Both the position numbers and the translations under genes were made by a program. From Paenibacillus pabuli (lineage in GTDB: Bacteria > Bacillota > Bacilli > Paenibacillales > Paenibacillaceae), in contig NZ_CP073714.1 in assembly GCF_023101145.1 (NCBI RefSeq), positions 3,906,001 through 3,970,000 on the forward strand: a stretch of 64,000 bases of DNA, read 5' to 3'. Of the stretch, positions 1,053-33,671 are shown piece by piece (position 1 is the stretch's first letter; the number at the start of each line of letters is the position of its first letter). The notes under the pieces were generated by a model that did no database searches, was not told the DNA's origin, and worked only from the letters and a program-made list of their open reading frames with translations.

Positions 1053-1881
1053 TTGTATATTCTACAAGAAAGTCTATTTTCCTTTGAAGAACTGCTAAAA
1101 ATGCAGTCTAAAGATCGATTGCCAATTTTCTTCAGCATTCTGGATCTTCGTCCCTGCGCCAAACAACTGAGAAGTCGTTCACCCCGAGGGAGCGGATGGA
1201 CACAGCAGAGAAGACATTCTGCGCGCTCTTTTGGCTGCTCCGCTTGAGCATATTCATACGTTTACCGCTCTACATCAGCGTCTGGCAACGACCTTCGCTT
1301 TCGCTACCCGTGCGGGCTTTCGTTGGACCGAGAAGCTCCTTCGATATCCACGTTAAGCCGCGTTTTTTCTGAACTGAAGAAGAAGAACCTCGCAAAGCAG
1401 CTTTTTGAGGAGCTGGTTACCCGCTGTCAGCAAGAAGGGATCATCGACGGAAGCCATGTAACCAACGATAGTGCTGCCATTCACGCCTACGAGAAGAAGC
1501 AACCAAAGCTCCAAAGCGAGCAAACCGGCGATGCGAATTGGAGAGCGAAGTTCGATTCCTTCGGCAACAAACTCACTTGGTCCGGTTACAAACTCCATCT
1601 GGCAGTTGACATGAAATCGAAAAGCGAACTACCAATGGCATTGGAAATTACCCCTGCGCATGTTAATGACGGTGAAATGGCCCCTGAACGGATTGCAAAA
1701 GTTGCTGCTAAAACAAATACAAAGTTCTTTATGCTCGATGCAGGCTACGACCAAATGAAAGTTTACGAAGCCGCCCGGAATGTGAAGGCACAAGCCATTA
1801 TTCCGCTCCCCCCCCCGAAGAGCGAAAGAGCCGCCTGCCGGGATGACGACTAAGCTCCCCCGCCGGCCCAATGGCCTGTGA
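1053..1881 (+). pseudogene. IS1182-like DDE transposase, frameshifted and truncated
   Basis: The reading frame starts near 1053, after a ribosome-site-like GGAAGG, with an N-terminus typical of IS1182 transposases. It is interrupted at least three times. Around 1190-1310 the homologous text (HSREDILRALLAAPLE and onward) is in another frame. It returns at 1323 with 'EAPSISTLSRVFSEL' and the DDE block 'DGSHVTNDSAAIHA'. After a nine-C tract (1808-1816) the family text 'AKEPPAGMTTK' continues in a third frame to a stop at 1879-1881. The C-terminal third, including the last catalytic acid, is missing. It is a dead element. Terminal inverted repeats were not identified. Confidence 0.85.
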
Positions 1882-2063
1882 GGGAGCTCACTCTCTTTTT
1901 CTGATCAGCACGAAAAAAATTAAAAGATTGTCGGTACCATGCCCCCATCTATTGGGATCGGGGATCCTTTGAAGGCGGAGGCCCCATCTCCCGCCTCGTT
2001 TGGCCGGATCGCTTCTTGCCTTCTGAAAGGCGGCGTATTCATGTACGGTTTGTTGTGGTACGT

Positions 2064-2540
2064 TTAGCGATAGAAGTCAACCATATCTCCAAATAGCCGT
2101 TTAATAAATTCGAGCTCGCTTTCGTTATATCTTTCCAAAAATTCGTACATTCTTTGCCTTTCCTTCGCGTGAAGCTCATCATGAGCGGCAAATAGCTTTT
2201 TGCCGACAGGCGTTAGCCGAAAATACACTTCCTTTTTGTTGTCGTTGAGTTGGGCTTTTCGCACCCAACCTGCCTTTAGTAATTTATTTGCGATCTTGGA
2301 GGTATTTCCTTTACTTAAATTTATTCTCTCCGCGATGGAAGTGAGATTGATCGGCTCCTGCTCTCCGATGCACGCAATGGTGTGCAGTTCCGTCATATTC
2401 AAGCTGAATTCCGATTCAATATGCTTCCGGATATCCTCCAGATATGTGGCAGTTATTCGGGTTTCATATTGCTCTTTTTGCTCAAGAAACTGAACGAAAA
2501 ATTCATGAATGGCGATTTTGTTCTTACTGGCAGTATCCAT
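2064..2540 (-). CDS. MarR-family transcriptional regulator
   Basis: The 158 residues match the usual MarR length and plan: an N-terminal dimerisation helix, a winged helix-turn-helix at about residues 50-110 ('TSIAERINLSKGNTSKIANK' recognition region, then the wing with DNKKEVYFRLTPVGK), and a C-terminal helix pair. MarR proteins are dimeric repressors released by phenolic or other aromatic ligands. The gene is divergent from the RidA-like/FAD monooxygenase pair. The 234-base gap between them contains a promoter with a palindrome just after its -10 box, so this protein very likely represses that pair. The ligand is unknown; an aromatic compound would fit the monooxygenase. Confidence 0.88.
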   Translation of the reverse strand: MDTASKNKIAIHEFFVQFLEQKEQYETRITATYLEDIRKHIESEFSLNMTELHTIACIGEQEPINLTSIAERINLSKGNTSKIANKLLKAGWVRKAQLNDNKKEVYFRLTPVGKKLFAAHDELHAKERQRMYEFLERYNESELEFIKRLFGDMVDFYR

Positions 2541-2629
2541 GATTATGCTGGCTCCTCGACTTATTTTTTTTATTATATCATAGATTGTTCTCTGAGAAAC
2601 AAACGGTCGAACTCATATTGATATTGGGG

Positions 2630-2680
2630 TTGACAGGATAAAGAGTCACCAAGTACAATTATATTGTTTCATATGAAATA
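2630..2680 (+). promoter_or_regulatory. Promoter with MarR-type operator
   Basis: A consensus -35 box TTGACA (2630-2635) is followed after 18 bases by TACAAT (2654-2659). The perfect 12-base palindrome TTTCATATGAAA (2667-2678), within ATTGTTTCATATGAAAT, covers the expected transcription start. This is a standard repressor position and the site resembles MarR-family operators. A further half-site-like GAAACAATA occurs about 60 bases downstream, near 2738. Confidence 0.65.
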
Positions 2681-2774
2681 AAATTTATATTAATTTTTTA
2701 TCACTCCTTTTTTAACAAGCAATAAAAAAGATTCTAACGAAACAATAATTAATGAAGGAGGTGCATAACTGCCT

Positions 2775-3176
2775 ATGGAAATCGTGAATCCGAAGACATT
2801 GACGGATAAGGTTACATCTGTAATTTCTCATGTCTTAGTAACCACTGCCGCCAAACTGGCCTTCATCTCAGGTCAGGTTTCTGTAGATGAAACGGGAGCA
2901 TTGGTCGGTTCAGGGGACTATTACGCGCAAGCGATTCAAGTGTTCTCCAATCTTAAGAATGCATTGGAAGCCGTGCGAGCGGATCCATTGTACATTGCAA
3001 AAATGAATATTTTTGTGGTAAACCATAACCCGGAATTGATTTCGATTATTTTTGACGCCGGATTTCATGTGTTTGGCTCTAACTGGCCGAAGACAGCAAG
3101 TACCTATATAGGCGTTCAATCGCTAGCCGATCCTGAGTGGCTTATCGAAATAGACGCGATCGTGATCTTCCCATAA
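2775..3176 (+). CDS. RidA/YjgF-family protein lacking the usual arginine
   Basis: The 133-residue protein has the YjgF/YER057c/UK114 fold signature, with 'AFISGQVSVDETGALVG', 'QVFSNLKNALEAV' and the terminal 'LIEIDAIVIF' strand. Canonical RidA enzymes hydrolyse reactive imines or enamines using an arginine in a P-A-R-[ST] segment. Here the aligned segment reads PKTASTYIGV, so that arginine appears to be absent. A different substrate or a non-RidA Rid subfamily role is therefore likely. It is followed 24 bases later by a flavin monooxygenase and probably acts on its product, a common pairing in catabolic operons. AAGGAGGTG lies 11 bases before the ATG, slightly long spacing. Confidence 0.85.
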   Translation: MEIVNPKTLTDKVTSVISHVLVTTAAKLAFISGQVSVDETGALVGSGDYYAQAIQVFSNLKNALEAVRADPLYIAKMNIFVVNHNPELISIIFDAGFHVFGSNWPKTASTYIGVQSLADPEWLIEIDAIVIFP

Positions 3177-3200
3177 TATTTATGAAAAGAGGTTATTTAG

Positions 3201-4697
3201 ATGAACTATGAAGTTATCCTTATCGGTGGTGGACCTGTCGGTATGATGTTGGCTGGAGAATTGGCATTAGCCGGTGTAAAGGTCTGCGTCATTGAGCGAT
3301 TAAAAGAGACAACTCCATATTCACGTGCGCTTACCGTACATCCACGAACCCTTGAAATATTAGATATGCGTGGAGTGAAATCACAATTAATCAGTCAAGG
3401 CCGCTTACTTTCGAGAGGACATTTCGCCGGATTAGAAACCCCTTTGGATTTCTCGGTGTTGGATTCCTCTTCCAATCACACCCTCTTTTTACCGCAGAGT
3501 GAGACGGAGAAGGTGCTGGAGGAATGGGCGCTTAGCCTTGGCGCAGAGGTCTGGAGAGAGGTTGAGGCTCTATCTGTTCACCAGGATGAGGATGGGGTTG
3601 ACGTTAAGATCGCGGGACCTCATGGAGAAACAATGTTAAGATCAGCTTATGTGGTAGGTACGGATGGAGCTAGAAGCTTGGTTCGCAAACATGCAAATAT
3701 ATTATTTGAAGGTACAGATGCGACCTTCACGGCGATTCTGGGGGATGCCGTTCTATCTGATTTGGCTCCTATGAGTGTCATATCCCGGATTACAGAGCAA
3801 GGATTGGTCAGCATCATGCCAATTAATGATCATATCTATCGAGTCTTGATGATCGATATGGAAAGACGTAACATCTCTAAAGATGAGACCGTTACATTGG
3901 AAGAGTTTCGTTCATCGCTCATCCGTACGACCGGAAGCGACTTGGGATTGAACGATGTGAAATGGATGTCCCGTTTCGGAAATGCGACGCGGCAAGCGGG
4001 ACGCTATCGGAATGATCGATTGTTCTTGGCGGGAGATTCGGCGCACATTCATTTTCCCGCTGGTGGACAGGGAATGAACGTCGGTTTACAAGAAGCGATG
4101 AACTTAGGCTGGAAGCTTGCAGGAGCAATCAAAGGCTGGGCTCCGGAATGGCTATTGGACAGTTATCATGCCGAACGTTTTCCATGGAATACAGCCTTGC
4201 TCCGGAATACCGAGGTCCAAACCCTGCTTCTGGATGTGACTCCTCCCATCAAGGAACTGCGAAGCATGCTGGCTGATCTGATTCAAATACCGGAGGCTAA
4301 TTATCAAATCGCTACACAAATTTCCGCCATGGATGTACATTATGCACCCGACGCCGAAGCGCCTTCCCACCCTTTAAACGGGAAACGGTTCAAGGATCTC
4401 CGCTTAAAGCTGAAAGACGGGCAATTGATGAACTCCTATCCGCTCCTGCACAAAGGTACTTTTCTTCTGTTGCATTTCCATTCTAATGAACAGAATAGCG
4501 GTCAATGGGAAACGTATAACAACCTTCAAGTTGTACATGCATCTGTGGCTGAGGCAGACGCAGATTGGAACGACGTCCACACGGCGCTTATTCGGCCGGA
4601 TGGATATATTGCCTGGGCGATTCCTCTATCCGAACCGAATCCAATGCAAACCATAAATGAAGGAATCACTCGCTGGTGCGGAGACATTACGGAGTAG
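3201..4697 (+). CDS. Class A FAD-dependent aromatic monooxygenase
   Basis: The 498-residue protein shows all three flavoprotein hydroxylase fingerprints. These are the N-terminal Rossmann motif GGGPVGMMLAGE (about residues 9-20), the 'VGTDGARSLVRK' DG motif (about 150), and the GD motif 'LFLAGDSAHIHFPAGGQGMN' (about 275-295). The last 100 residues resemble the thioredoxin-like C-terminal domain of phenol- and polyketide-hydroxylase relatives. These NAD(P)H-dependent cytosolic enzymes put one oxygen atom on an aromatic ring; rifampicin- and tetracycline-modifying enzymes are in the same family. Co-transcribed with the RidA-like gene and probably controlled by the divergent MarR protein. The substrate is unknown. 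Confidence 0.9.
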   Translation: MNYEVILIGGGPVGMMLAGELALAGVKVCVIERLKETTPYSRALTVHPRTLEILDMRGVKSQLISQGRLLSRGHFAGLETPLDFSVLDSSSNHTLFLPQSETEKVLEEWALSLGAEVWREVEALSVHQDEDGVDVKIAGPHGETMLRSAYVVGTDGARSLVRKHANILFEGTDATFTAILGDAVLSDLAPMSVISRITEQGLVSIMPINDHIYRVLMIDMERRNISKDETVTLEEFRSSLIRTTGSDLGLNDVKWMSRFGNATRQAGRYRNDRLFLAGDSAHIHFPAGGQGMNVGLQEAMNLGWKLAGAIKGWAPEWLLDSYHAERFPWNTALLRNTEVQTLLLDVTPPIKELRSMLADLIQIPEANYQIATQISAMDVHYAPDAEAPSHPLNGKRFKDLRLKLKDGQLMNSYPLLHKGTFLLLHFHSNEQNSGQWETYNNLQVVHASVAEADADWNDVHTALIRPDGYIAWAIPLSEPNPMQTINEGITRWCGDITE

Positions 4698-4815
4698 TAA
4701 TTTGTTTGAGGTGTGTAACTGCCTTTCCATTGGATGAACTTGTATCTAGGACGTCTGAATGAACTAAAATCACGGTACGCTACACTCCATAAAACGCCAT
4801 GTTCTCCATAAGTAT

Positions 4816-4862
4816 GAAAATACCGCTCAAGTGTTATCCAATAACGCTTAGGCGGTATTTTC
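4816..4862 (+). terminator. Long hairpin after the monooxygenase gene
   Basis: GAAAATACCGC...GCGGTATTTTC form arms of about 22 bases with a few mismatches around a two-base loop. The hairpin lies 119 bases after the stop codon. The A-rich and T-rich outer bases make it plausible as a bidirectional terminator, but there is no clean T tract beyond it. Confidence 0.5.
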
Positions 4863-4922
4863 ATTTCTGAGAAAGAAGGTACTATACGCTCCGTTTCGTT
4901 CCGCAGAAATCAATTGCAAATT

Positions 4923-4951
4923 AAATAAAAGCCGCCTTTATAAAAGGCGGC
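4923..4951 (-). terminator. Rho-independent terminator (minus strand)
   Basis: GCCGCCTTT/AAAGGCGGC form a nine-base stem with a three-base loop at 4931-4951. On the minus strand it is followed by a T-rich run (TTTTATTTAA). It lies just after the GH1 remnant, so it was probably the original terminator of that glucosidase gene and now ends transcripts of sugar locus A. Confidence 0.75.
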
Positions 4952-5045: not shown

Positions 5046-5150
5046 TTATAACTGTTCTCCATTAGAAGCAATGACCTGTTTGTACCACTCGAAACTTTTC
5101 TTTTTGATTCGTTTTAAGCTTCCGTTACCATAATCGTCTTGATCAACATG
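5046..5150 (-). pseudogene. C-terminal remnant of a GH1 beta-glucosidase
   Basis: Directly after the stop of the GH31/GH43 chimera, the minus strand encodes about 34 codons. They include 'DYGNGSLKRIKKKSFEWYKQ' followed by 'VIASNGEQL' and a stop at 5046-5048. This is the characteristic end of bacterial GH1 beta-glucosidases and 6-phospho-beta-glucosidases (K-R-x-K-K-S-F-x-W-Y-K near the C-terminus). There is no start codon and no catalytic part. The rest of the gene has been lost at the junction near 5150. A beta-glucoside PTS EIIC fragment at 12.7-13.3 kb may come from the same former operon. Confidence 0.72.
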
Positions 5151-7426
5151 TTATCTGCCACTTGGCAACCTGTCCCGGTTAAAGTGTACTCGGCGAAGAC
5201 CTACAGATCTCTTGCCAAACGGATTCGGACCGATGCCATGGTACACCAGCATTAGATTGCCGTATTCATCCATAACAAAGGAGTTATGTCCTGGACCGTA
5301 CTCCTTCTCTACCGATAACGAAGATAATACAGGCGCGTTGCTCTTGACCCAGCTGCCGGGATTCAAGAGATCCGTCCCTCTTTTGACAGTCAAGGTTCCC
5401 ACGACATAGGTAGGCTCATTAGCAGACCCACCGGAATATGTAATGAGAATATAATCGTCGGTAACGATACAATACGGGCCTTCATTATTGATCGTATGCC
5501 TGTTATTTTCCCAACCATAAAGCGGCCGTGTTATTAACACCAGATCACTGGTCAATTGCCAGGGTCTTGCTGGATCGATCGTAGCGATAAACAGCATGGA
5601 ACCTGAGTCTTCCGGTGACCAGCGGCGCCAGGACCAAATGACATAAGATCCTCCATCGACTTCCAAGTACGTCATATCGAGTGTAATATCCAATTCCTCG
5701 CCGTCCTCGCGAACCGACCCCAGATACACACCATCCTTATTAACCATGCGAATGGGATGTTCCCAGTCAGATGCATTCAGACGCTCACGAAGGTGCATGT
5801 ATTTCTTAAAGATTTCGTAGGCTTCATCTCCATAGCTCCATACTTCGTTATCCGATCCGCTTCCGCAAACTCCTCCGCCTTTCGTTCCCGATGGAGCAAT
5901 AAAGGGTACCCGATCCCCATGCAAGCGAAACACCGGGCACAAGGCACCATACTGAAACCAGCGAATGATACACTCCCGAAAAGAAGAATCCTGCGGATCG
6001 CCTCCATGAAATCCACCGATATCTGTTGTCCACCAAGGGATTCCTGCAATGGCCATATTCAGCCCCGCTCTCACTTGCATTCCCAGCACTTTAAAACTGG
6101 AGTGTATGTCGCCAGACCATACTAAGGCACCAAAACGTTGGCTCCCCGCCCACGCTGTGCGCACGAGGTTGATAATATGGGTTTGTCCGGCTGCGGCCAT
6201 CCCTTCGTACAGAGTTTGGCTGTACTTCTGGGGATAAATATTCCCGACCTGCTGGCTGGAGCCGATGTGATAGCGATAGATATCATGGTCATATACGCTG
6301 AGTTCAGGCTCTGCCTCATCCAACCAAATAATACGAATCCCTTTATCATAATAATTTTTTTTGATAATCTCCCATAAAAATGTACGTGCCTGCGGATGGG
6401 TAGCGTCAAAGATAGCATTTTCGCCAAGAAACTGAAACTGCGTGCGAACACCACGATCGGAACGGAGCAAGTAGCCTTTTTCTATCATATACAGATAGTT
6501 TTCACTCTCCGTTTGAACGGTAGGCCATACAGAAACCATCAACTCAATGCACATCTCTTGCAGTTCGCGAACCATAGCTTCTGGATCAGGCCAATACTGC
6601 GGGTCGAACTTCGAATCTCCCTGATTGGTCCAATGGAAGAAATCGATTACGATGACGTCAATCGGTAATTGACGGCGCTTGTACTCCCTGGCCACTTGCA
6701 GCAATTCCTCCTGGGTACGATAGCGAAGTTTGCACTGCCAAAACCCCATGCCATATTTAGGCATCATCGGAACTCTTCCCGTAATGGCTGAATACTTCTC
6801 TTCGATCTCGGCAGGAGTATTACGCGCTGTAATCCAATAATCAAGCTGTTTAGTTGAAGGTGCGTGCCATTGTGTTCCATTCAAGCTGAAATGAACCTCA
6901 CCAATAGCCGGATTATGCCATAGAAAGCCGTAACCCTCGCTGGAAAGAACAAATGGAACGCTGACCTGGCTGTTGCGATGGGTTAGATCCAAGGTACATC
7001 CTTTCAGATTCAAAAAGGTATGCTGGTATTGACCCATGCCAAATAATTTTTCGGATGGTTTCGATTCCAATTGTAATTTAACAGAAAAATCGCTGCCGCC
7101 TGGAACCGCCTTTAGCTCCCTGCCTCCATATTTTAATTGATACGTTTTTTCCGTTTCTTTCAGCAGTAATTTCCCATCCTGGTTGTAGAACAGAATTTGC
7201 CCGCTTCTTTTGATTTCAGCCTTAATCTTCCCATTCGCAATCGTAGCAGCCTCTTCCTCGATCCCAATTTCGGAGTGGTGCTGAGTCGCAGGCATAAGCG
7301 CCCAATCATCATCTGTTATCTCTGCATAAGAAGCCCTGATGCGAAGGGAATGCTCCCCCAAGGCTCTATCCCAAGTCTCTCATGATCATACTCTCTGACC
7401 AGTCGACCATTTTCAGTACGAAACAT
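5151..7426 (-). pseudogene. GH31 alpha-glycosidase front fused to GH43 back, with N-terminal frameshift
   Basis: The open frame (736 codons from 7361) begins as a GH31 alpha-xylosidase/alpha-glucosidase. It has the nucleophile motif WLDEAEPE (D348) and the acid/base motif WSGD (D418). At about residue 528 (near 5777), after 'HLRERL', it switches in frame to the second half of a GH43 five-bladed propeller: 'LDMTYLEVDGGSYVIWSW', 'NNEGPY' with the general-acid Glu (E627), and 'GPGHNSF'. The GH31 C-terminal beta domains and the GH43 front, including its catalytic-base Asp, are missing. The real start is ATG 7426, preceded by GGGAGGG. From there MFRTENGRLVREYDHERLG runs to a G5 tract near 7358 where one G is missing. 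The gene abuts the AraC stop codon. Activity is doubtful. Confidence 0.82.
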
Positions 7427-7427
7427 A

Positions 7428-8387
7428 CTAGCAAGTCCCTCCCAAGTGTTTACATGAACAGTCTAGAATGCTGCTTCGATAATGTGTTGGGGTGTACCCA
7501 TAAGCTCTTTTAAAGGTTTCCGTAAACCGATTGACATTGCTGAACCCTGTCAAATTCGAGATTTCAACAATTTTCTTATCCGAGGTTTCCAATAAATTCA
7601 CCGCTTCCAACAATCGGTGCTGATTCAATAATTCCAGTGGAGTCAGATCGAATTGCTTTTTGACAAAGCGGCAAAAATACGATGGATTCATATTCACTTG
7701 GTTCGCCATGTCATGAAGCGATATGCGTTTGCTGTAATTTTCCTGAATAAAAGCGAGTAATTTGATGGCCAGCAAGGAGTGATGACTCCCTCTGGCGCGG
7801 CCCATCCCTGAATCAATATCTTTTGCACAGATTTCTAGCCGAAACAGGATATCGAATAACATGGCTTTGATTTTCAATTCATAGCCTGCGGGTTTATTCC
7901 AATATACATGGATGATTTCTCTTAATACCGAAAATAATCCCATCTGAGAATCCTTATCTTTAGGGATGACTGAAGGATACTGCCGCTGCTGCAAAAATAA
8001 AGAGGAAACATACTTACTTTGAATGATATCGTTTTCAAAGCTGGACAAAAAATTATAGTGAACCAGTACAGCATAAAAGACAATCTCCCCCTGATCCACT
8101 CGGCTGGCAGAATGCAGCATATTGGGGGGGATGATTAAAACATCCCCGCTGCTTATCTTTATTTTTTCCTGTCCGATATAAAATTGAGCACTACCATCTT
8201 CGATGATCAAAAATTCCAATTCTTCATTCCAGTGAGAATACAACACAAGGTTGCTAAAGCTTGGCACATACGTCTTGTAGACACTCATACGAAACTGCTT
8301 ATCGCCATGCTGTATTTTCTCCTTCAGATCCTTTGTTACAAATTTGCCGTTCGAATCTTGTGATTCATAACCTTGATGTTTTTTCAT
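7428..8387 (-). CDS. AraC-family regulator with cupin sensor domain
   Basis: The 319-residue protein has an N-terminal cupin-like arabinose-binding domain (about residues 35-140, with 'ISSGDVLIIPPNMLHSA'). A C-terminal pair of helix-turn-helix motifs follows (about 205-305: 'ISLHDMANQVNMNPSYFCRF' and 'KIVEISNLTGFSNVNRFTET'). Such proteins activate sugar-use operons when the sugar binds the cupin. It is located between the permease gene and the GH31/GH43 chimera in one minus-strand run, 30 bases after the permease. Its last codons contain the ribosome site of the hydrolase gene. It probably regulates this locus. Confidence 0.9.
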   Translation of the reverse strand: MKKHQGYESQDSNGKFVTKDLKEKIQHGDKQFRMSVYKTYVPSFSNLVLYSHWNEELEFLIIEDGSAQFYIGQEKIKISSGDVLIIPPNMLHSASRVDQGEIVFYAVLVHYNFLSSFENDIIQSKYVSSLFLQQRQYPSVIPKDKDSQMGLFSVLREIIHVYWNKPAGYELKIKAMLFDILFRLEICAKDIDSGMGRARGSHHSLLAIKLLAFIQENYSKRISLHDMANQVNMNPSYFCRFVKKQFDLTPLELLNQHRLLEAVNLLETSDKKIVEISNLTGFSNVNRFTETFKRAYGYTPTHYRSSILDCSCKHLGGTC

Positions 8388-8416
8388 GTGTCACCACTCT
8401 CGCAGGATATGCGACT

Positions 8417-9349
8417 TTAACCTTTCACCGCACCAATCATGACACCCTTCTCGAAGTACTTTTGGATAAAAGGGTATACGACTAACAGCGGTACTGTAGA
8501 TACGATAATTACAGCAAATTTGATTTGGTCCGCATACTGCTGCGCATAGCTGCCCGCTCCCGCTCCTGCACCGGATCCTGCTCCATCAGCAAACGCTTGA
8601 TTGGATAACAGAATATTTCGCAGAATGATCTGCAGCGGCTGCAAATGATCGGAGTTAAGATATAACAATGGGTTAAAGAAGTCGTTCCAATGTCCGACAG
8701 CGTAATACAAGGCAATGACTGAAATAACCGCCTTCGAAAGCGGGGTGACCACAGAGGCCAGGTACCGAAAATGTGAGCAGCCGTCCAAAAGCGCCGCCTC
8801 ATGCAGATCATCCGGGATGGAGCTTTCAAAAAAGGTTCTTGTAATAATGAGGTTATAGACGCTGACCGCGCCATTGATAATCATGACCCAAGGCGTGTTG
8901 AGTAAGTGCAAATCTCTGAACAGCAGATAAGTAGGAATCATGCCTCCGCTGAAATACATGGTGAATACAAACAAAGGCATAATGATTTTCCTGGCCCTGA
9001 ACTCCCTGCGTGAAAGGGAATATGCAGCAGGAATCGTAATCACAAGATTCAATAATGTGCCGAAAACCGTATAAATAATCGTGTTCAAATACCCCTGCCA
9101 AATTCGGCTATCCACAAAAATTTTCTCGTACCCGTAAAAATTGATTCCTTTGGGGAAGAAGATCACATCGCCCTGGTTCACCATCGTTGAATTGCTGAAT
9201 GACGCAATAACGATGAAATATAAAGGATACGCTATAACGACAAAGGTAAAGATGCTTATGACGATCACGACCAATCTATATAGCCGATCAGCTATGCCAC
9301 CACCCGAATCAAGGACATGAACTTTTTTTGAAGTTTTAACGGGTACCAC
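8417..9349 (-). CDS. Carbohydrate ABC importer permease, YtcP/LplC-like
   Basis: The 310-residue inner-membrane protein has six predicted membrane segments. The conserved cytoplasmic EAA loop reads 'LHEAALLDGCSHFRYLASVV', the coupling site for the ATPase. The C-terminus 'YPFIQKYFEKGVMIGAVKG' is typical of CUT1 permeases of the YtcP/LplC group. It would pair with the LplB-like permease encoded just upstream. The start is GTG at 9349, supported by GGAGGGG about six bases before; no ATG lies near. A Gly/Ala-rich stretch (AGSGAGAGAGS) between the last two membrane segments is unusual. No ATPase gene is present in the locus. Confidence 0.9.
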   Translation of the reverse strand: MVPVKTSKKVHVLDSGGGIADRLYRLVVIVISIFTFVVIAYPLYFIVIASFSNSTMVNQGDVIFFPKGINFYGYEKIFVDSRIWQGYLNTIIYTVFGTLLNLVITIPAAYSLSRREFRARKIIMPLFVFTMYFSGGMIPTYLLFRDLHLLNTPWVMIINGAVSVYNLIITRTFFESSIPDDLHEAALLDGCSHFRYLASVVTPLSKAVISVIALYYAVGHWNDFFNPLLYLNSDHLQPLQIILRNILLSNQAFADGAGSGAGAGAGSYAQQYADQIKFAVIIVSTVPLLVVYPFIQKYFEKGVMIGAVKG

Positions 9350-9362
9350 TCCGTCCCCTCCT

Positions 9363-10265
9363 TTACATTAGACTAATGTTCGAAGACTTTTGGGCGACAG
9401 AGTTCGCGAGCATCAAAAACATGAAGTTGACGACCGTATTGAACAAGCCGACCGCTGAACCGAAGCTGTACTGGTTGGATTTCACACCTACATTAAACAC
9501 ATAAGTGGAGATGACTTCTGATACCGGCTTATTCAGACTATTCTGCATTAGAAAGGTTTTTTCAAAACCTACACTCAGCATGCTGCCCATATTCAGAATA
9601 AGCAGAATAATAATCGTTGGCATAATGGCGGGTATTTCTACGTTCCATACAATTTGCCATCGATTAGCACCATCAATTTTGGCTGCATCATACAGCTGCG
9701 TTTCTACTGTGGAAAGTGCAGCGATAAAAATAATACTGTTCCAACCGCACACTTGCCAGATGCCTGATAAGACGTAAACCGGTACAAATGCGGAAGGATT
9801 TCCCAAGAGGTTAACATCGGCAGGAACCAAATGAAAAGTTTTCAGAAATAAGTCAAGAACTCCTGTAGAAGGCGAAAGCAGGATTTGAAGCAAAGCCACC
9901 ATAACCACCGTCGAAATAAAATAAGGCATGTAAACCGTGGTTTGGAGAATGCGCTTGTACTTGTTGTTTTTGATCGAATTAATGACCAGTGCTAACAGAA
10001 TCGGCATGGGAAAACCAAGCAAGATGGAGAAGAAAGCAATGACGAATGTATTTCTTAGCGTTGGCCAAAACATGGGACTGTTAAAGTATTGTTCAAAATA
10101 CTTGAATCCGGCCCAATCCCCTCCGGTAAATCCCTTGCTGAAGTCAAAATCCCGAAATGCAAGCTGTATGCCGTACATTGGACCATAAGCAAACACAGCG
10201 ATATAAATCAAGGCGGGAAGAACCAGTATCCATAATTGATAATTGCCCTTTTGCATCGATTTCAT
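9363..10265 (-). CDS. Carbohydrate ABC importer permease, LplB-like
   Basis: A CUT1 permease of about 300 residues with six membrane segments. The EAA loop is 'LYDAAKIDGANRWQIVWNVE'. It is closest in style to LplB/YtcO-type permeases (start segment 'LPALIYIAVFAYGPMYGIQL'). It forms the transmembrane channel with the downstream YtcP-like protein and receives the oligosaccharide from the lipoprotein encoded upstream. GGAGG lies eight bases before ATG 10265; a TTG immediately in front (10268) is the alternative start. Spacing to the binding-protein gene is about 12 bases, so one transcript is expected. Confidence 0.9.
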   Translation of the reverse strand: MKSMQKGNYQLWILVLPALIYIAVFAYGPMYGIQLAFRDFDFSKGFTGGDWAGFKYFEQYFNSPMFWPTLRNTFVIAFFSILLGFPMPILLALVINSIKNNKYKRILQTTVYMPYFISTVVMVALLQILLSPSTGVLDLFLKTFHLVPADVNLLGNPSAFVPVYVLSGIWQVCGWNSIIFIAALSTVETQLYDAAKIDGANRWQIVWNVEIPAIMPTIIILLILNMGSMLSVGFEKTFLMQNSLNKPVSEVISTYVFNVGVKSNQYSFGSAVGLFNTVVNFMFLMLANSVAQKSSNISLM

Positions 10266-10277
10266 CAAGCGTCCCTC

Positions 10278-11897
10278 CTACTTAAGCGTAGTCAAATATT
10301 CATTGTACGCTTTTTGGCGAATTTCCAAATTCTGGGTAAGTCCAGAATCTTTGACGGACTTTACGTAAGCGTCCCATTCGCTTTCGATGCTCGCGCCTGT
10401 GGTCATCCATTGCGCCCATTTCTGATCGGTAATGTTATTGATGTTCGCCTGGTTTAAGGCCAAGGTATTGATGTCTTCTGTCGTATACTTCATAAAATCC
10501 TGTGGATAAACATTGGATTTCGGGTCTGCTTTGTTCAGCAGCTCGTCGTAGACCGCTTTCTCATCAAGTACGCTTCGCATGTCTGTACCTAATGTGATTT
10601 TATCTTGAATACTGTCAGCAATATAATAAGGTCCGAGATCGGCGAATGTATTGGTCCACTTCCATGACCCAGGATCTATAGACGGATCCGCAGGAGGCAG
10701 AATTTGATAGGTACCATCACCTTGATCTTGAATCCCCTTGTCCGTGTCATTCATGCCGCCGAACAATACCTGAATACTGACTTCAGGGTCGTAAAATTCG
10801 TTAATGAATCGCATCGCTGCTTCTTTATCCTTGGATTTGGCGCTGATGGAAACCGCGTTGTCTCCATAGTTTTGCGTGTAATGGTCATAACTCCAATAAA
10901 GTTCATTCGTAGAATCGGCATGATGCTTAAGCTGCGGCAGCGTGATATATTGGTCTTTCAACACACTGCCAAACCGATCTCCCGTCTCCCATCCCCACGT
11001 AAATCCAATCTTCGCCGTATCGCCATTACCTCTGCCCAGCGACTGATATTTTGAATAATCCTGAGTAATGGTTTCTTTATTAATCAAATTTTGATTGTAT
11101 AAGCGTTGAAGAAACATAACCAACGTCTTGAAGCGTTCATCGACAAAAAAGTTCTTCACCTCGGCATTTTCCACGAAATAGCCGTTTGGCGAATCTTCGG
11201 ACAGCGGTAACCCCAGACTTCCCAGCAGAAGCTTGGCAGAGAAACCTACCGGCATGCCGCTAAAATCCATAGGTATTTCATCCGTTGAATCACCGTTCTG
11301 ATTGGGGTCTCCATCACGGAAGGCAACGAGTACACTTTCGAGCTCGTCCCAAGTTGTTGGAGGCTCCAGTCCGAGATTGTCCAGCCACGTTTTATTAATG
11401 AACATGGACGCGATACTATCGGGCCAGATCCCTTTATATCGCGGAATACCGTAGATTTTGCCGTCACTTTCAGCCGCGAGCGTCTTTAGCTCTGGATGCT
11501 CATCAAACATTTTTTTGACATTGGGGGCCTCTTGCTCAATCAATGAACTCATATCTTCAAATAGTCCGTTGAATTGTACGAAATCACTGTCGGCAGTTGC
11601 ATTGAACAATAGATCCGGAACTTGCCCGCTGGCAAACAGTGCACTTTTTTTCTGATCCCAATCCGCAGTAATCTGCTGCCACTCAATTTCTACATTCGCT
11701 TTATCTTCCAGATCTTTAAGCCATTTCATCTGATTGACGTCCTTTGTCAGTGAATGCTTCACAATAATAGCCGTCAATTTGGTCTTGCCTGATGAACCAT
11801 CCTCACCAGAATCCGTACGATTGCTCTGACACCCTGCCAGTACCAAGGACACCATGGAAATTGCCAATAAAGCATGCCTAAAAATCCGCTTTTTCAT
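10278..11897 (-). CDS. Extracellular solute-binding lipoprotein (LipO/YtcQ-like)
   Basis: A large sugar-binding protein (about 540 residues) of the family-1 LipO/YtcQ type. ATG 11897 is preferred over the upstream ATG at 11927 because GAGGGG lies eight bases before it and it gives a proper signal: Lys/Arg-rich MKKRIFRH, a hydrophobic core, then the lipobox LVLAGC. After cleavage the Cys is lipidated and the protein sits outside the membrane, delivering an oligosaccharide to the two permeases. First gene of sugar locus A. A CcpA-type site lies about 90 bases upstream, so glucose repression is likely. The sugar cannot be deduced, but the GH31 and GH43 neighbours suggest xylo- or arabino-oligosaccharides. 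Confidence 0.9.
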   Translation of the reverse strand: MKKRIFRHALLAISMVSLVLAGCQSNRTDSGEDGSSGKTKLTAIIVKHSLTKDVNQMKWLKDLEDKANVEIEWQQITADWDQKKSALFASGQVPDLLFNATADSDFVQFNGLFEDMSSLIEQEAPNVKKMFDEHPELKTLAAESDGKIYGIPRYKGIWPDSIASMFINKTWLDNLGLEPPTTWDELESVLVAFRDGDPNQNGDSTDEIPMDFSGMPVGFSAKLLLGSLGLPLSEDSPNGYFVENAEVKNFFVDERFKTLVMFLQRLYNQNLINKETITQDYSKYQSLGRGNGDTAKIGFTWGWETGDRFGSVLKDQYITLPQLKHHADSTNELYWSYDHYTQNYGDNAVSISAKSKDKEAAMRFINEFYDPEVSIQVLFGGMNDTDKGIQDQGDGTYQILPPADPSIDPGSWKWTNTFADLGPYYIADSIQDKITLGTDMRSVLDEKAVYDELLNKADPKSNVYPQDFMKYTTEDINTLALNQANINNITDQKWAQWMTTGASIESEWDAYVKSVKDSGLTQNLEIRQKAYNEYLTTLK

Positions 11898-11987
11898 TAC
11901 ATTGACCCCTCTCTTCATGAATAGCAATATTCGAGCTCATCCGAAAAGATTTTTTCGTACAGACCATCTAAAAAAGGTTCAATTTTA

Positions 11988-12002
11988 TGTTTGCGCTTTC
12001 AA
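11988..12002. promoter_or_regulatory. Candidate cre site (CcpA) before sugar locus A
   Basis: The minus-strand sequence TTGAAAGCGCAAACA fits the Firmicute cre consensus WTGNAANCGNWNNCW at every fixed position. It lies about 90 bases before the binding-protein start and downstream of a TATAAT box (minus strand, near 12058-12063). Bound CcpA would act as a roadblock. The match is exact, but function is inferred. Confidence 0.6.
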
Positions 12003-12279
12003 TTAGGTGATTCATTGACAAATGTCTGGCCAGATCATTTACCCAACGTTATCATCATTATAGAGTGCCATAATCTAGTTTGTCTCTTTGTATAATAGCC
12101 AATCATCATCGTATTTTGACTTTTTTTGCACATTAAAGGTGAGCATTAAGGGAGTCGCATTTTAGTTTGCAAAAGCTGCTCTAGTTCTCCCATGCCACCG
12201 ACTATGGTTAAATTCCTCACTCTTATATAGGCAGCAGCATAGAATAAACTAAATACTAGGCCATAAGAGGAGAATGAGT

Positions 12280-12687
12280 ATGAACCAGAAATTGTCCCCT
12301 TACGATCCGTTGTACAGTTCCATGAAGAAAGGTTGGAATGTCAACGATCAGGGTTATCAGCCTCAACATGATCACAGGCATCATAACGTTAATTATCCTA
12401 TTGAAAAATTAGAATTAAGAGACTATGGACAACGTCCACTTGTCATTAATATTGACCAGGCAGCTAAATATAATCAGACGTACCGCACTGCTCTATGGAC
12501 AGGAAAATACTTCCAAGTTACTCTGATGAGTATTCAGGTCGGTGAAGATATCGGGCAAAAGCCTGACTTCTCTTTGACGAGAAATCAGGCTTCTTGTGAT
12601 CAATCCATAGGCAAGCAGCTCATAGAATTTCAGATTAACGGTGGACTGAAGATCTTCTCTATAATCCATATAGACTCTATTCTATGA
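12280..12687 (+). pseudogene. Cupin-domain protein, C-terminally truncated
   Basis: The first 90 codons look like a real small cupin-type protein ('YRTALWTGKYFQVTLMSIQVGEDIG'-like segment, shown in parts). ATG 12280 has AGGAG seven bases upstream. In intact relatives the cupin metal-binding histidines follow directly. Here the frame instead runs at 12557 into a hairpin (AAGCCTGACTTCTC/GAGAAATCAGGCTT, 12559-12592), which looks like a terminator from another gene. It continues as non-homologous sequence to a stop at 12687. The gene was cut by a deletion or rearrangement and is probably inactive. The original function is not known. Confidence 0.6.
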
Positions 12688-12741: not shown

Positions 12742-13282
12742 TCATTCACTGCTATCTTTGTTCATGGTGTGAAGTGAGTCTTCTGCTCCCCTGTCATCTA
12801 CGATCTTAGCGAAGATGGATGCAGTCGCAGCAGGCTTGATGCCATCACGGCCGTGCACCGCAACGTTGTTTATGAAGATTGGAACAAGGCTCCAGTGTAC
12901 ACCGAAGATAACAAACAACTGCCAGCCCGCTCCCATGACTGCTCCAGCAAGCAGTGGATTGAAGCCAAAGGCAGCAACCAGTGCAGTTGCAATGGCGTTA
13001 CCTACATATACACCGAATGGTCCGAATGCAATCAACGTGAGAGGAACCATGATCACTAAGAGCAGCAATGGTGTAATGAAGTTTTTGACGCTCTGATGAA
13101 TGACTTTGTTAAACCATTTCTCGAGCAAGCTCATCACGATGACCGAAATAATGATCGGAATGACAGTTGAGGAATAACTCATCATAACGACCGGAATATC
13201 GAAGAAATCGGTTGGCGTACCTTCATTTTTCAGTGTAACAATGGTCGGATATATTAATGCACCCGCGATCGTAAGCGCAACG
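12742..13282 (-). pseudogene. Beta-glucoside-type PTS EIIC fragment
   Basis: The minus strand encodes an internal piece of a PTS permease: 'ALTIAGALIYPTIVTLKN' upstream of the first ATG, then 'VMMSYSSTVIPIIISV', 'FGVYVGNAIA' and 'FGVHWSLVPIFINN'. These are hallmarks of the beta-glucoside/trehalose EIIBC family (BglP-like). The N-terminal EIIB domain and the end of EIIC are missing. The fragment is bounded near 13283 by the S1-like fragment and on the other side by an unrelated tail (DDRGAEDS...). It is non-functional on its own. It may be a relic of the same bgl operon as the GH1 tail at 5.0 kb. Confidence 0.72.
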
Positions 13283-13643
13283 TTTTATAACGATCATTCA
13301 TGTTGTCGATCCACTCATAGGATACCTCGTCCGCTTGCAGGTATGTTTTAATGGCACCAACATCCAGATGCAAAGAGCGATTATTGACACGAGTAATTTT
13401 AGCTTCAATGACCATATTCTCTCGAAGCCGATCCCAAGTCAGTCCTTGAAGATGGTCAATAGCTTGTTTGCTTGATGCACCAAAAATTGCTGAGTTACGG
13501 TCAAGTTGAAGAACTTTATAATAGATTGTCGTACCGACAGCATCTCTCAATTGTGCCCCGTTTTCAAACTCAGTTTCGTCGTTAGGGACAATTCCTTTGA
13601 TATGACCTACGAATACAATACCGCACACCTTGCCGGCGTACAC
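13283..13643 (-). pseudogene. S1-type RNA-binding protein fragment
   Basis: About 120 codons resemble S1 (OB-fold) RNA-binding proteins of Bacillales. Two partial S1-like units are visible: 'HIKGIVPNDETEF' through 'YYKVLQLDRNSAIFGASSKQ', and 'WDRLRENMVIEAKITRVNNR' followed by 'LHLDVGAIKTYLQADEV'. The start is unclear, since the frame opens inside a domain and no ribosome site is seen. The 3' end runs straight into the PTS fragment at about 13283, where the frame is lost. It is therefore a fragment left by rearrangement. The full-length relative might be a mobile-element gene; that part is a guess. Confidence 0.5.
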
Positions 13644-15979: not shown

Positions 15980-16099
15980 CCTCCCCTAATTAAACTCTGA
16001 GAAAAAGTCGCTATTTTTATTTCAGGATTCGTTTTCTGTCAAGTTTATCCTTCATGTTTTTTTGTCTTTTTATCTTTGCTGGTTTTCCTCCATCCTACC

Positions 16100-16245
16100 T
16101 AATCGGAAAAGACACAATGTTCTTGTCCATTTCGGCAATGGTACATTGTTCTTGTCCTCAGCTTGGGACAAGAACTTGGTTCCTTAAAACAAAAAAGCCG
16201 CTATAATAGCGACTTTGAATGGAACAATGATCTTGTCCCGCGACA
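16100..16245 (+). repeat. Dispersed structured repeat, copy 1 (subfamily A)
   Basis: A full copy of the ~150 bp family. It contains three direct motifs of the form TGTTCTTGTCC, one inverted GGGACAAGAAC, and a hairpin AAGCCGCTATAATAGCGACTT. On the minus strand the hairpin is followed by a T run, so it is an intrinsic terminator. It forms the 3' end of the truncated zeta toxin frame. Subfamily A differs by GGTTCC/GGAACA in the arms instead of GTACC. Confidence 0.85.
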
Positions 16246-18229: not shown

Positions 18230-18642
18230 CTCTTTCATTCCTTTACTCATCATTTAGGTTTCTACTCAGCAACCAAGTTAAATATAGATTCTACTAACGA
18301 TTTCTTTGTTAAAGAGACTTCCTATTCAATTGCTCTAGTACGTACGTTTCTGTTCCTGAAGCCATCAGCCTTACATCCTTTCTAACTAATACGGTTAAAA
18401 CTAGTTTCTTGACTACCTCAAGTTCGTATGTACTTATTTTCGGTGTTTTACTATGTATAGGTATATTAGGACCTAAATACTAACAAAACAGATTATAATA
18501 AGAATATTTTACCACTATATATTCATTTAATATAGGTATATCCTCTCGGTTCACCATGGCAATCCCCCTTTAATGATTACTACTGCAGGAAAACCGCCTT
18601 CTAAACAAACATGTTCCCGCTCAATTAGAGGACAGAGAAATA

Positions 18643-18690
18643 TTAGATATATATCTAATCGGAAATAGGAACATGTTCTTGTCCTCAGCA
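18643..18690 (+). repeat. Dispersed repeat, copy 2 (partial, 5' part)
   Basis: Only the leading part is present: the palindrome ATTAGATATATATCTAAT, then CGGAAATAGGAACATGTTCTTGTCC, before the match is lost. Same orientation as the other copies, 140 bases before copy 3. The remainder of 18255-19040 outside the repeats shows no coding signal. Confidence 0.7.
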
Positions 18691-18830: not shown

Positions 18831-18988
18831 TTTAGATGTACATCTAATCGGTAATCGGACTATGATCTTGTCCATTCCGGCAATCGGTACAAGTTCTTGT
18901 CCTTGGCTCGGGACACGAACTTGTACCGATTAATAAAAAAGTCGTTAAAATAGCGACTTCAATGGGACCATGTTCTTGTCCCGCAACA
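18831..18988 (+). repeat. Dispersed repeat, copy 3 (subfamily B, full)
   Basis: A complete copy. The leading TTAGATGTACATCTAA palindrome comes first, then motif GGACTATGATCTTGTCC. GGTACAAGTTCTTGTCC is followed after eight bases by its inverted partner GGACACGAACTTGTACC. Next come the terminator-like hairpin GTCGTTAAAATAGCGAC and GGGACCATGTTCTTGTCCC. Read on the minus strand it encodes L-R-D-K-N-M-V-P-L-K-S-L-F and a stop. Confidence 0.85.
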
Positions 18989-27886: not shown

Positions 27887-27961
27887 GTTGAAGCAGCTGG
27901 TTTCATAATCATAATCCACCATTTAGTCTGTTAGTCGATCAAAAGGACTCACTACTCACAC

Positions 27962-28119
27962 TTAGATATATATCTAATCGGAAATCGGACTATGTTCTTG
28001 TCAATTTCGGCAATAGGTACAAGTTCTTGTCTTTGGCTTGGGACAAGAACTTGTACCATTAAAATAAAAAAGCCGCTAAAATAGCGACTTTAATGGGATT
28101 ATGTTCTTGTCCCCCGACA
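27962..28119 (+). repeat. Dispersed repeat, copy 6 (subfamily B, full)
   Basis: A complete copy with the palindrome TTAGATATATATCTAA, GGACTATGTTCTTGTC, then GGTACAAGTTCTTGTC and its inverted partner GACAAGAACTTGTACC. The terminator-like hairpin AAGCCGCTAAAATAGCGACTT and the final GGGATTATGTTCTTGTCCC follow. Nearly identical in layout to copies 3 and 8. Confidence 0.88.
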
Positions 28120-32965: not shown

Positions 32966-33121
32966 GTAGATATAACTCTAATCGGAAATCGGACTATGTT
33001 CTTATCCATTCCGGTAATCGGTACAAGTTCTTGTCTTTTGCTCGGGACAAGAACTTGTACCGATAAAAAAAAATCCGCTATAATAGCGAATTCAATGGGT
33101 CTATGTTATTGTCCCTCGTCA
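32966..33121 (+). repeat. Dispersed repeat, copy 8 (subfamily B, full)
   Basis: Complete copy with slightly degraded ends: GTAGATATAACTCTAATCGG, GGACTATGTTCTTATCC, then GGTACAAGTTCTTGTC...GACAAGAACTTGTACC. The hairpin ATCCGCTATAATAGCGAAT and TATGTTATTGTCCC follow. Located 300 bases upstream of the copper-amine-oxidase-N gene start. Confidence 0.85.
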
Positions 33122-33551: not shown

Positions 33552-33671
33552 ATCTAATCCGCAATGACACAATGTTCTTGTCCTTAGCCAGGGACAAGAA
33601 CTTGGTTCCTTAAAACAAAAAAAGCCGCTATAAGAGCGACTTGAATGGAACAATGTTCTTGTCCCTCGACA
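33552..33671 (+). repeat. Dispersed repeat, copy 9 (subfamily A, short)
   Basis: Like copy 1 but lacking the second direct motif: ACACAATGTTCTTGTCC, a short spacer, GGGACAAGAACTTGGTTCC, AAGCCGCTATAAGAGCGACTT and GGAACAATGTTCTTGTCCC. On the minus strand it supplies the last codons (SRDKNIVPFKSLL) of a 61-codon frame. Confidence 0.85.

What the first reader, a model, noticed from the sequence alone, without database searches (positions are those of the whole stretch)
5046..7426. Three glycoside hydrolase genes collapsed into one locus
One open frame joins a GH31 catalytic domain (D348, D418 present) to the last third of a GH43 (general-acid Glu kept, catalytic-base half lost). The tail of a GH1 enzyme follows immediately. 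The GH31-GH43 junction at about residue 528 is in frame, so a 736-residue chimera could be made from the downstream start. Its GH31 active site is complete but the C-terminal domains are replaced by propeller blades.
Basis: partly seen in the sequence, partly recalled or inferred. Interest (0 to 1): 0.6.

Follow-up and report, generated by a model that had tools for sequence, protein, structure and literature searches.

The report
Decayed sugar-enzyme genes fused by deletion
A Paenibacillus genome carries the wreck of two neighbouring sugar-cutting enzyme genes that a single deletion happened to join in one reading frame, next to the leftover end of a third; it looks like ordinary gene decay and not like a new enzyme.

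Summary
The GH31-GH43 open frame (5151-7361, minus strand) and the GH1 tail (5046-5159) are real. A relative in the genus, G072, keeps intact ancestors: a 656-residue GH31 (nearest solved structure: alpha-xylosidase MeXyl31) overlapping a 785-residue GH43. G000 matches it at 96.8% and 98.1% on the two sides of the join but lacks 1,982 bp, which have no match elsewhere in G000's one-contig genome. So the 'chimera' is one deletion (2-bp microhomology) that kept frame by chance, as one in three would. A one-base contraction near the GH31 start separates the ORF from its native start codon. The GH31 part has changed at conserved residues (G271C, F345I, Y410F, W250S), and dN/dS of both remnants exceeds that of four intact neighbours. 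The GH43 3' end is cut off against the last ~37 residues of a GH1 gene: a second junction, not a third fusion partner. Low dS (0.08-0.16 in island genes; 0.38 in rpoB, the one control) suggests lateral transfer. None of 79 readable homologues (best 80 of 111 loci) is fused. Best reading: a decaying pseudogene. A working new enzyme is not excluded but unlikely.

The parts
7316..7426 (-). Native GH31 start (ATG 7426) and a 36-codon remnant frame that ends at a stop after the one-base contraction
   Evidence: start region alike in G072, G017, G022; run of five G where these three have six; frame then reads into a stop
5778..7361 (-). GH31 remnant (N-terminal sandwich and TIM barrel; about residues 23-550 of the 656-residue G072 protein); C-terminal domain PF21365 lost
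5775..5780 (.). Deletion junction; 1,982 bp missing compared with G072 (L049 8617-10598), shared TT (TTNAG with one mismatch)
5164..5777 (-). GH43 remnant (about residues 555-760 of the 785-residue G072 protein); part with the catalytic-base motif and last 25 residues lost, motif NNEGP with the general-acid Glu kept
5160..5164 (.). Second junction: similarity to G072 stops at 5164, other DNA with the GH1 tail begins
5046..5159 (-). Last ~37 residues of a GH1 (6-phospho-beta-glucosidase type) gene, with stop codon
4931..4951 (-). Terminator-like hairpin followed by T-rich tract, downstream of the GH1 tail
   Evidence: Read directly from the sequence; not tested by a scan
7428..8387 (-). AraC-family regulator, intact
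   Evidence: dN/dS vs G072 0.127
8417..11927 (-). Two ABC-type sugar permease genes (named from memory, not scanned) and a solute-binding protein (PF01547), frames open, same island as GH31/GH43
   Evidence: dN/dS 0.029, 0.011, 0.047
5164..12555 (.). Extent of the stretch shared with G072 (two blocks separated in G072 by the deleted segment)
   Evidence: rpoB comparison

Best explanation
It is a decaying gene pair. A cluster for sugar uptake (ABC transporter, AraC regulator, GH31 of the alpha-xylosidase type, GH43) was exchanged between this lineage and that of G072, or came to both from elsewhere (inferred from dS). In G000 the two enzyme genes are broken: a deletion of 1,982 bp with a 2-bp microhomology removed the GH31 C-terminal domain and the first 554 residues of the GH43 (shown by comparison with G072; that G072 is the ancestral state is inferred from its intact genes and from the homologues), which put the two remnants in one frame by a one-in-three chance (simulated); a one-base contraction cut the ORF off from its start codon (shown in the assembly); the GH43 3' end is cut against other DNA that bears only the tail of a GH1 gene (shown; mechanism unknown). 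The order of these events is not known. The product, if any is made, is expected to be inactive (inferred).
For: Intact, overlapping GH31 and GH43 genes in G072. Missing segment without a match in G000. Start frame broken while three relatives agree; this is the only coding indel in the 6,781 columns aligned to G072, the other one-base indel (12267) lying between genes. Pairwise dN/dS window vs G072: GH31 part 0.198, GH43 part 0.524, four neighbours 0.011-0.127; nonsynonymous:synonymous 20:26 and 7:4 against 22:111 pooled in the neighbours, Fisher p 4.6e-4 and 1.3e-3. Changes assigned to the window branch: 12 nonsynonymous, 9 synonymous; to the G072 branch: 6 and 11; unassigned 1 and 5. Window-branch changes at sites identical in 13 of 13 close homologues include G271C (G in 79 of 79 of the wider set), F345I (F in 77 of 79) and W250S (W in 62 of 79). 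33% of 20,000 random deletions between the two genes join frames.
Against: The 736-codon frame is still free of stops, both catalytic Asp of GH31 remain, and the dN/dS of the GH31 part is well below 1 (part of this may date from before decay). The comparison of window and G072 branches alone is not significant (12:9 vs 6:11, p = 0.21; conserved-site hits 7 of 12 vs 1 of 6, p = 0.15). Breaking well-conserved columns is not unique to the window: it breaks 7 (one a start artefact, two shared with G072), and 9 of 79 homologues, scored leave-one-out, break 5 or more, up to 11. The neighbours are different genes, so part of the dN/dS contrast could be gene-specific. Two of the 13 outgroups (L071, L104) are subspecies of one species and not independent. 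The one-base contraction could be a sequencing error, which cannot be checked without reads.
Confidence: 0.9

Rival explanations
1. A new, expressed chimeric enzyme: translation from the TTG at 7361 (or by slippage on the G run) gives a GH31 barrel capped by GH43 blades, with altered specificity.
For: Open frame of 736 codons; catalytic Asp 348 and 418 kept; AF2 model gives moderate to high confidence for most of residues 1-530.
Against: Native start out of frame, no clear ribosome-binding site ahead of the TTG (read by eye), GH31 C-terminal part lost while the 79 readable named homologues and G072 and G017 match it (81 of 83 sequences compared; the two without are the chimera and the broken L106), GH43 domain incomplete, conserved residues changed, raised dN/dS.
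Confidence: 0.04
2. Assembly artefact: the genes are intact in the cell and the assembler dropped a segment.
For: One genome only; no reads available; homopolymer indels are a common error (recalled).
Against: Single contig; the missing 1,982 bp have no match in G000; the junction has only a 2-bp shared sequence, too short to mislead an assembler (inference); changes at conserved sites and the second junction argue for real decay.
Confidence: 0.03
3. GH31 remnant still active as a truncated enzyme, decay being very recent and only GH43 lost.
For: GH31 dN/dS 0.198 is well below 1; TIM barrel nearly complete, PF01055 positions 2-321 of 328.
Against: Loss of the C-terminal domain, lost start, substitutions three residues before the nucleophile (F345I) and at W250 and G271.
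Confidence: 0.03

Closest known systems
GH31 alpha-xylosidase MeXyl31 (PDB 5zn6, 5zn7)
   Same: Best solved relative by sequence of both the remnant (E 2.8e-213) and the intact G072 protein (E 9.4e-269, residues 6-651 aligned)
   Different: MeXyl31 aligns over the full length of the intact protein; the window copy lacks the C-terminal domain and its start, and carries substitutions at conserved residues
GH43 arabinofuranosidase and beta-xylosidase entries (PDB 3akf, 5m8b)
   Same: Intact G072 GH43 matches at E 1.8e-36 and 6.1e-36
   Different: Window copy lacks the first part of the domain with the catalytic-base motif and the final 25 residues
Pseudogenes fused by deletion in bacterial genomes
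   Same: Short-microhomology deletion between neighbouring genes, other lesions, relaxed constraint
   Different: Here the join happens to be in frame over 736 codons. The general kind is recalled; my paper searches gave listings only and no precedent was read

Membership tests
GH31 (functional member) | Catalytic nucleophile and acid/base Asp | tested here: met
   WLDEAEP D348 and WSGDIHS D418; roles recalled from the family
GH31 (functional member) | C-terminal beta-domain (PF21365) | tested here: not met
   Present in G072 residues 565-649, not found in the chimera
GH31 (functional member) | Expressible frame from the native start | tested here: not met
   Start frame ends after 36 codons
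GH31 (functional member) | Residues conserved in the subfamily | tested here: not met
   181, 271, 345, 410 changed in columns at least 95% conserved among 79 homologues; position 1 also differs but is the start artefact; 164 and 384 are shared with G072; 9 of 79 homologues break 5 or more such columns themselves, so this alone is not proof
GH43 (functional member) | Complete five-bladed catalytic domain with base Asp, modulator Asp and acid Glu | tested here: not met
   PF04616 122-286 of 288 only; RADPH motif (residue 456 in G072) lost, NNEGP kept; motif roles recalled
GH1 (functional member) | Catalytic barrel | tested here: not met
   Only residues 438-474 of the query GH1 remain here
Pseudogene | Disabling lesions relative to an intact orthologue plus relaxed constraint | tested here: met
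   Lesions. Constraint: significant against neighbours, not significant between the two branches alone
Pseudogene | No expressed functional product | not testable with these tools
   Needs RNA, protein or activity data

The most novel reading that the evidence does not exclude
The fused frame is translated from the TTG start, and the GH43 blades stand in for the lost GH31 C-terminal domain, giving a neomorphic alpha-glycosidase caught soon after birth by deletion within a laterally acquired operon.
Probability: 0.03. Interest if true: 0.6.

Novelty: new member of a known kind. Interest (0 to 1): 0.12.

Why it matters
As decay it matters little beyond annotation: an automatic pipeline could call a GH31/GH43 bifunctional enzyme here, which would mislead counts of carbohydrate enzymes. 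If the chimera were active it would be a natural case of domain replacement between two glycoside hydrolase folds by one deletion, with the parental pair still intact in a relative.

Tried and rejected
Considered that the GH1 tail (5046-5159) and the PTS EIIC fragment (12805-13283) are the two ends of one bgl operon split by the island. Left as unproven: the nearest relatives of the PTS fragment (93-94% protein identity in L151-L153) sit in loci with GH1 before PTS and a GH1 that is 70-73% like the tail, while the loci chosen for the tail's best DNA matches (L067-L069, tail identity 79-91%) hold PTS genes only 36-38% like the fragment.

Structure: the AF2 model of the chimera (24 rows, mean pLDDT 62.7, pTM 0.71) is moderate to high for most of the GH31 part, with some short stretches under 50, and below 50 for most of 530-736. 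The alignment held no GH43 rows, so the poor C-terminus says nothing about folding. A second alignment with three GH43 pieces was misaligned by MAFFT and not used for a job. No fold search was made.

Deletion length: the script also printed 1977, from the ends of BLAST blocks that overlap by 5 columns; the difference of the two offsets is 1,982, which I use.

Paper searches: listings with starts of abstracts only; no paper was opened. MeXyl31 appears in one review in the library (PMC7527525, listing only).

Rfam: no match at gathering scores in the window and L049.

Rows dropped: the named-locus search kept the best 80 of 111 relatives, so 31 were not seen. L106 was left out of the 79 because its frame at the match is broken (43 codons). 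In one search G017 and L071 are both counted.

Full report
What is there. The minus-strand ORF 5151-7361 (736 codons, TTG start) carries a GH31 N-terminal and barrel domain and the C-terminal part of a GH43 domain. Downstream, 5046-5159 encodes the last ~37 residues of a GH1 of the 6-phospho-beta-glucosidase kind, followed by a terminator-like hairpin at 4931-4951 (read). The window is part of a one-contig, 7.6-Mb genome, G000.

The intact counterpart. Of 75 genomes of the genus searched (G000 included), the listed matches show a close GH31 only in G072, G017 and G022 besides G000 (96%, 81%, 81% identity; the next is 31%), and a close GH43 only in G072 (93%; the next are 44%). In G072 (L049) the GH31 is 656 residues (10278-12248) and overlaps the start of a 785-residue GH43 (7924-10281), with GH31 C-terminal and GH43 domains present. 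Window 5776-12555 matches L049 10597-17376 at 96.8% and 5164-5780 matches 8003-8619 at 98.1%. The offsets differ by 1,982 bp, with TT shared at the junction. That 1,982-bp segment gives no match in G000 and one full match in G072. It is therefore a real loss in the assembly as given, and G000 shows no second copy.

Why in frame. The two genes overlap out of frame, so a deletion joins their frames one time in three; a simulation gave 33.3% in frame and 32.5% open to the GH43 stop, of 20,000. The in-frame join is not remarkable.

Other lesions. The native GH31 start (ATG 7426) lies directly after the AraC gene, and the start region is alike in G072, G017 and G022. A run of six G in those three is five in the window, so the native frame stops after 36 codons. 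In 6,781 aligned columns against G072 there are only two one-base indels; the other (12267) is between genes. GH43 similarity stops at 5164, 25 residues before the end of the G072 protein, and other sequence follows.

Constraint. dN/dS between the window and G072 is 0.198 for the GH31 part and 0.524 for the GH43 part, against 0.127, 0.029, 0.011 and 0.047 for AraC, the two permeases and the binding protein. Counts of nonsynonymous and synonymous differences are 20:26 and 7:4 against 22:111 (Fisher p 4.6e-4, 1.3e-3). With 13 close homologues as outgroups, 12 nonsynonymous and 9 synonymous changes fall on the window branch and 6 and 11 on the G072 branch, with 1 and 5 unassigned; this contrast alone is not significant (p = 0.21). 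Of the 12 window changes 7 are at sites conserved in at least 12 of the 13, of the 6 G072 changes 1 (p = 0.15). Among 79 homologues, residues 181, 271, 345 and 410 break columns at least 95% conserved in the window but not in G072; against this, 9 of the 79 homologues break 5 or more such columns themselves. F345I is three residues before the nucleophile D348.

Is it fused elsewhere? Of 80 named loci (the best 80 of 111 found), 79 give a readable GH31 frame; these and G072 and G017 (the latter the same genome as L071) match the GH31 C-terminal part (81 of 83 sequences, the two without being L106, whose frame is broken, and the chimera itself), and none but the chimera matches GH43. A GH43 relative lies within the fetched flanks of 3 of 80 (L072 P. 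tritici, L075 P. helianthi, L095 P. piscarius), as a separate match 1 to 2 kb or more after the GH31, so the closeness of the two enzymes is not peculiar to this pair of genomes. A wider search of the family for fusions failed on a frame error and was not repeated.

Origin of the locus. dS between the window and G072 is 0.08-0.16 in GH31 and the four intact island genes (0.029 in the short GH43 remnant) and 0.375 in a 1,004-codon part of rpoB, the only control gene. L049 before 8003 and after 17376 does not match the window apart from copies of a short dispersed repeat; of the DNA that follows the island in G072, G000 shows only a 237-bp, 79% match about 140 kb away from the island. The island was thus probably exchanged after the two lineages split, or came to both from elsewhere. 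On the left, 2056-4904 is found in G020 and G054 in another setting. On the right, fragments of a PTS EIIC gene (12805-13283) and of a gene with a weak S1-domain match (13282-13637) follow. The locus is a patchwork with several broken pieces, in which the GH1 tail is one more. G000 has 12 further GH1 matches spanning most of the query, 4 of them with one TAA within the match that I did not examine, and for GH31 only distant relatives among the listed matches (best 27% identity).

Verdict. Shown: the intact counterpart, the deletion relative to it, the frame break, the GH43 end cut, the excess of amino-acid changes against the neighbours. Inferred: which state is ancestral, lateral transfer, lack of product, order of events. 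Catalytic roles, motif names and the permease names are recalled.

Noticed in passing
window 12742-13637: Internal fragment of a PTS EIIC gene (PF02378 positions 81-239 of 319) abutting a fragment with a weak S1-domain match (19.8 bits, cut-off 22); both look truncated.
   Followed up: partly
window 16098-16214, 18642-18681, 18832-18958, 27959-28092, 32967-33089, 33575-33641; L049 4532-4662: Dispersed repeat of about 130 bp, several copies in the window and one beside the island in G072; no Rfam match; position relative to genes and structure not examined.
   Followed up: no
window 12500-12555; L049 17321-17613: The last ~55 bp at the right edge of the island match many genomes of the genus at 78-89%, and in G072 the similarity to another place in G000 (about C1:4057817-4058098) runs on for some 240 bp: perhaps a conserved leader or regulatory element; no Rfam match.
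   Followed up: partly
L106 (Gracilibacillus boraciitolerans): The GH31 homologue there also has a broken frame near its start (43-codon frame at the match start).
   Followed up: no
window 1323-1853: ORF with a partial DDE transposase domain (DDE_Tnp_1 positions 4-106 of 200), near the left edge of the patchwork.
   Followed up: no
window 2056-4904: MarR regulator, RidA-like protein (name recalled) and FAD monooxygenase block, 90-93% identical in G020 and G054; in G054 the monooxygenase frame is broken into pieces.
   Followed up: partly
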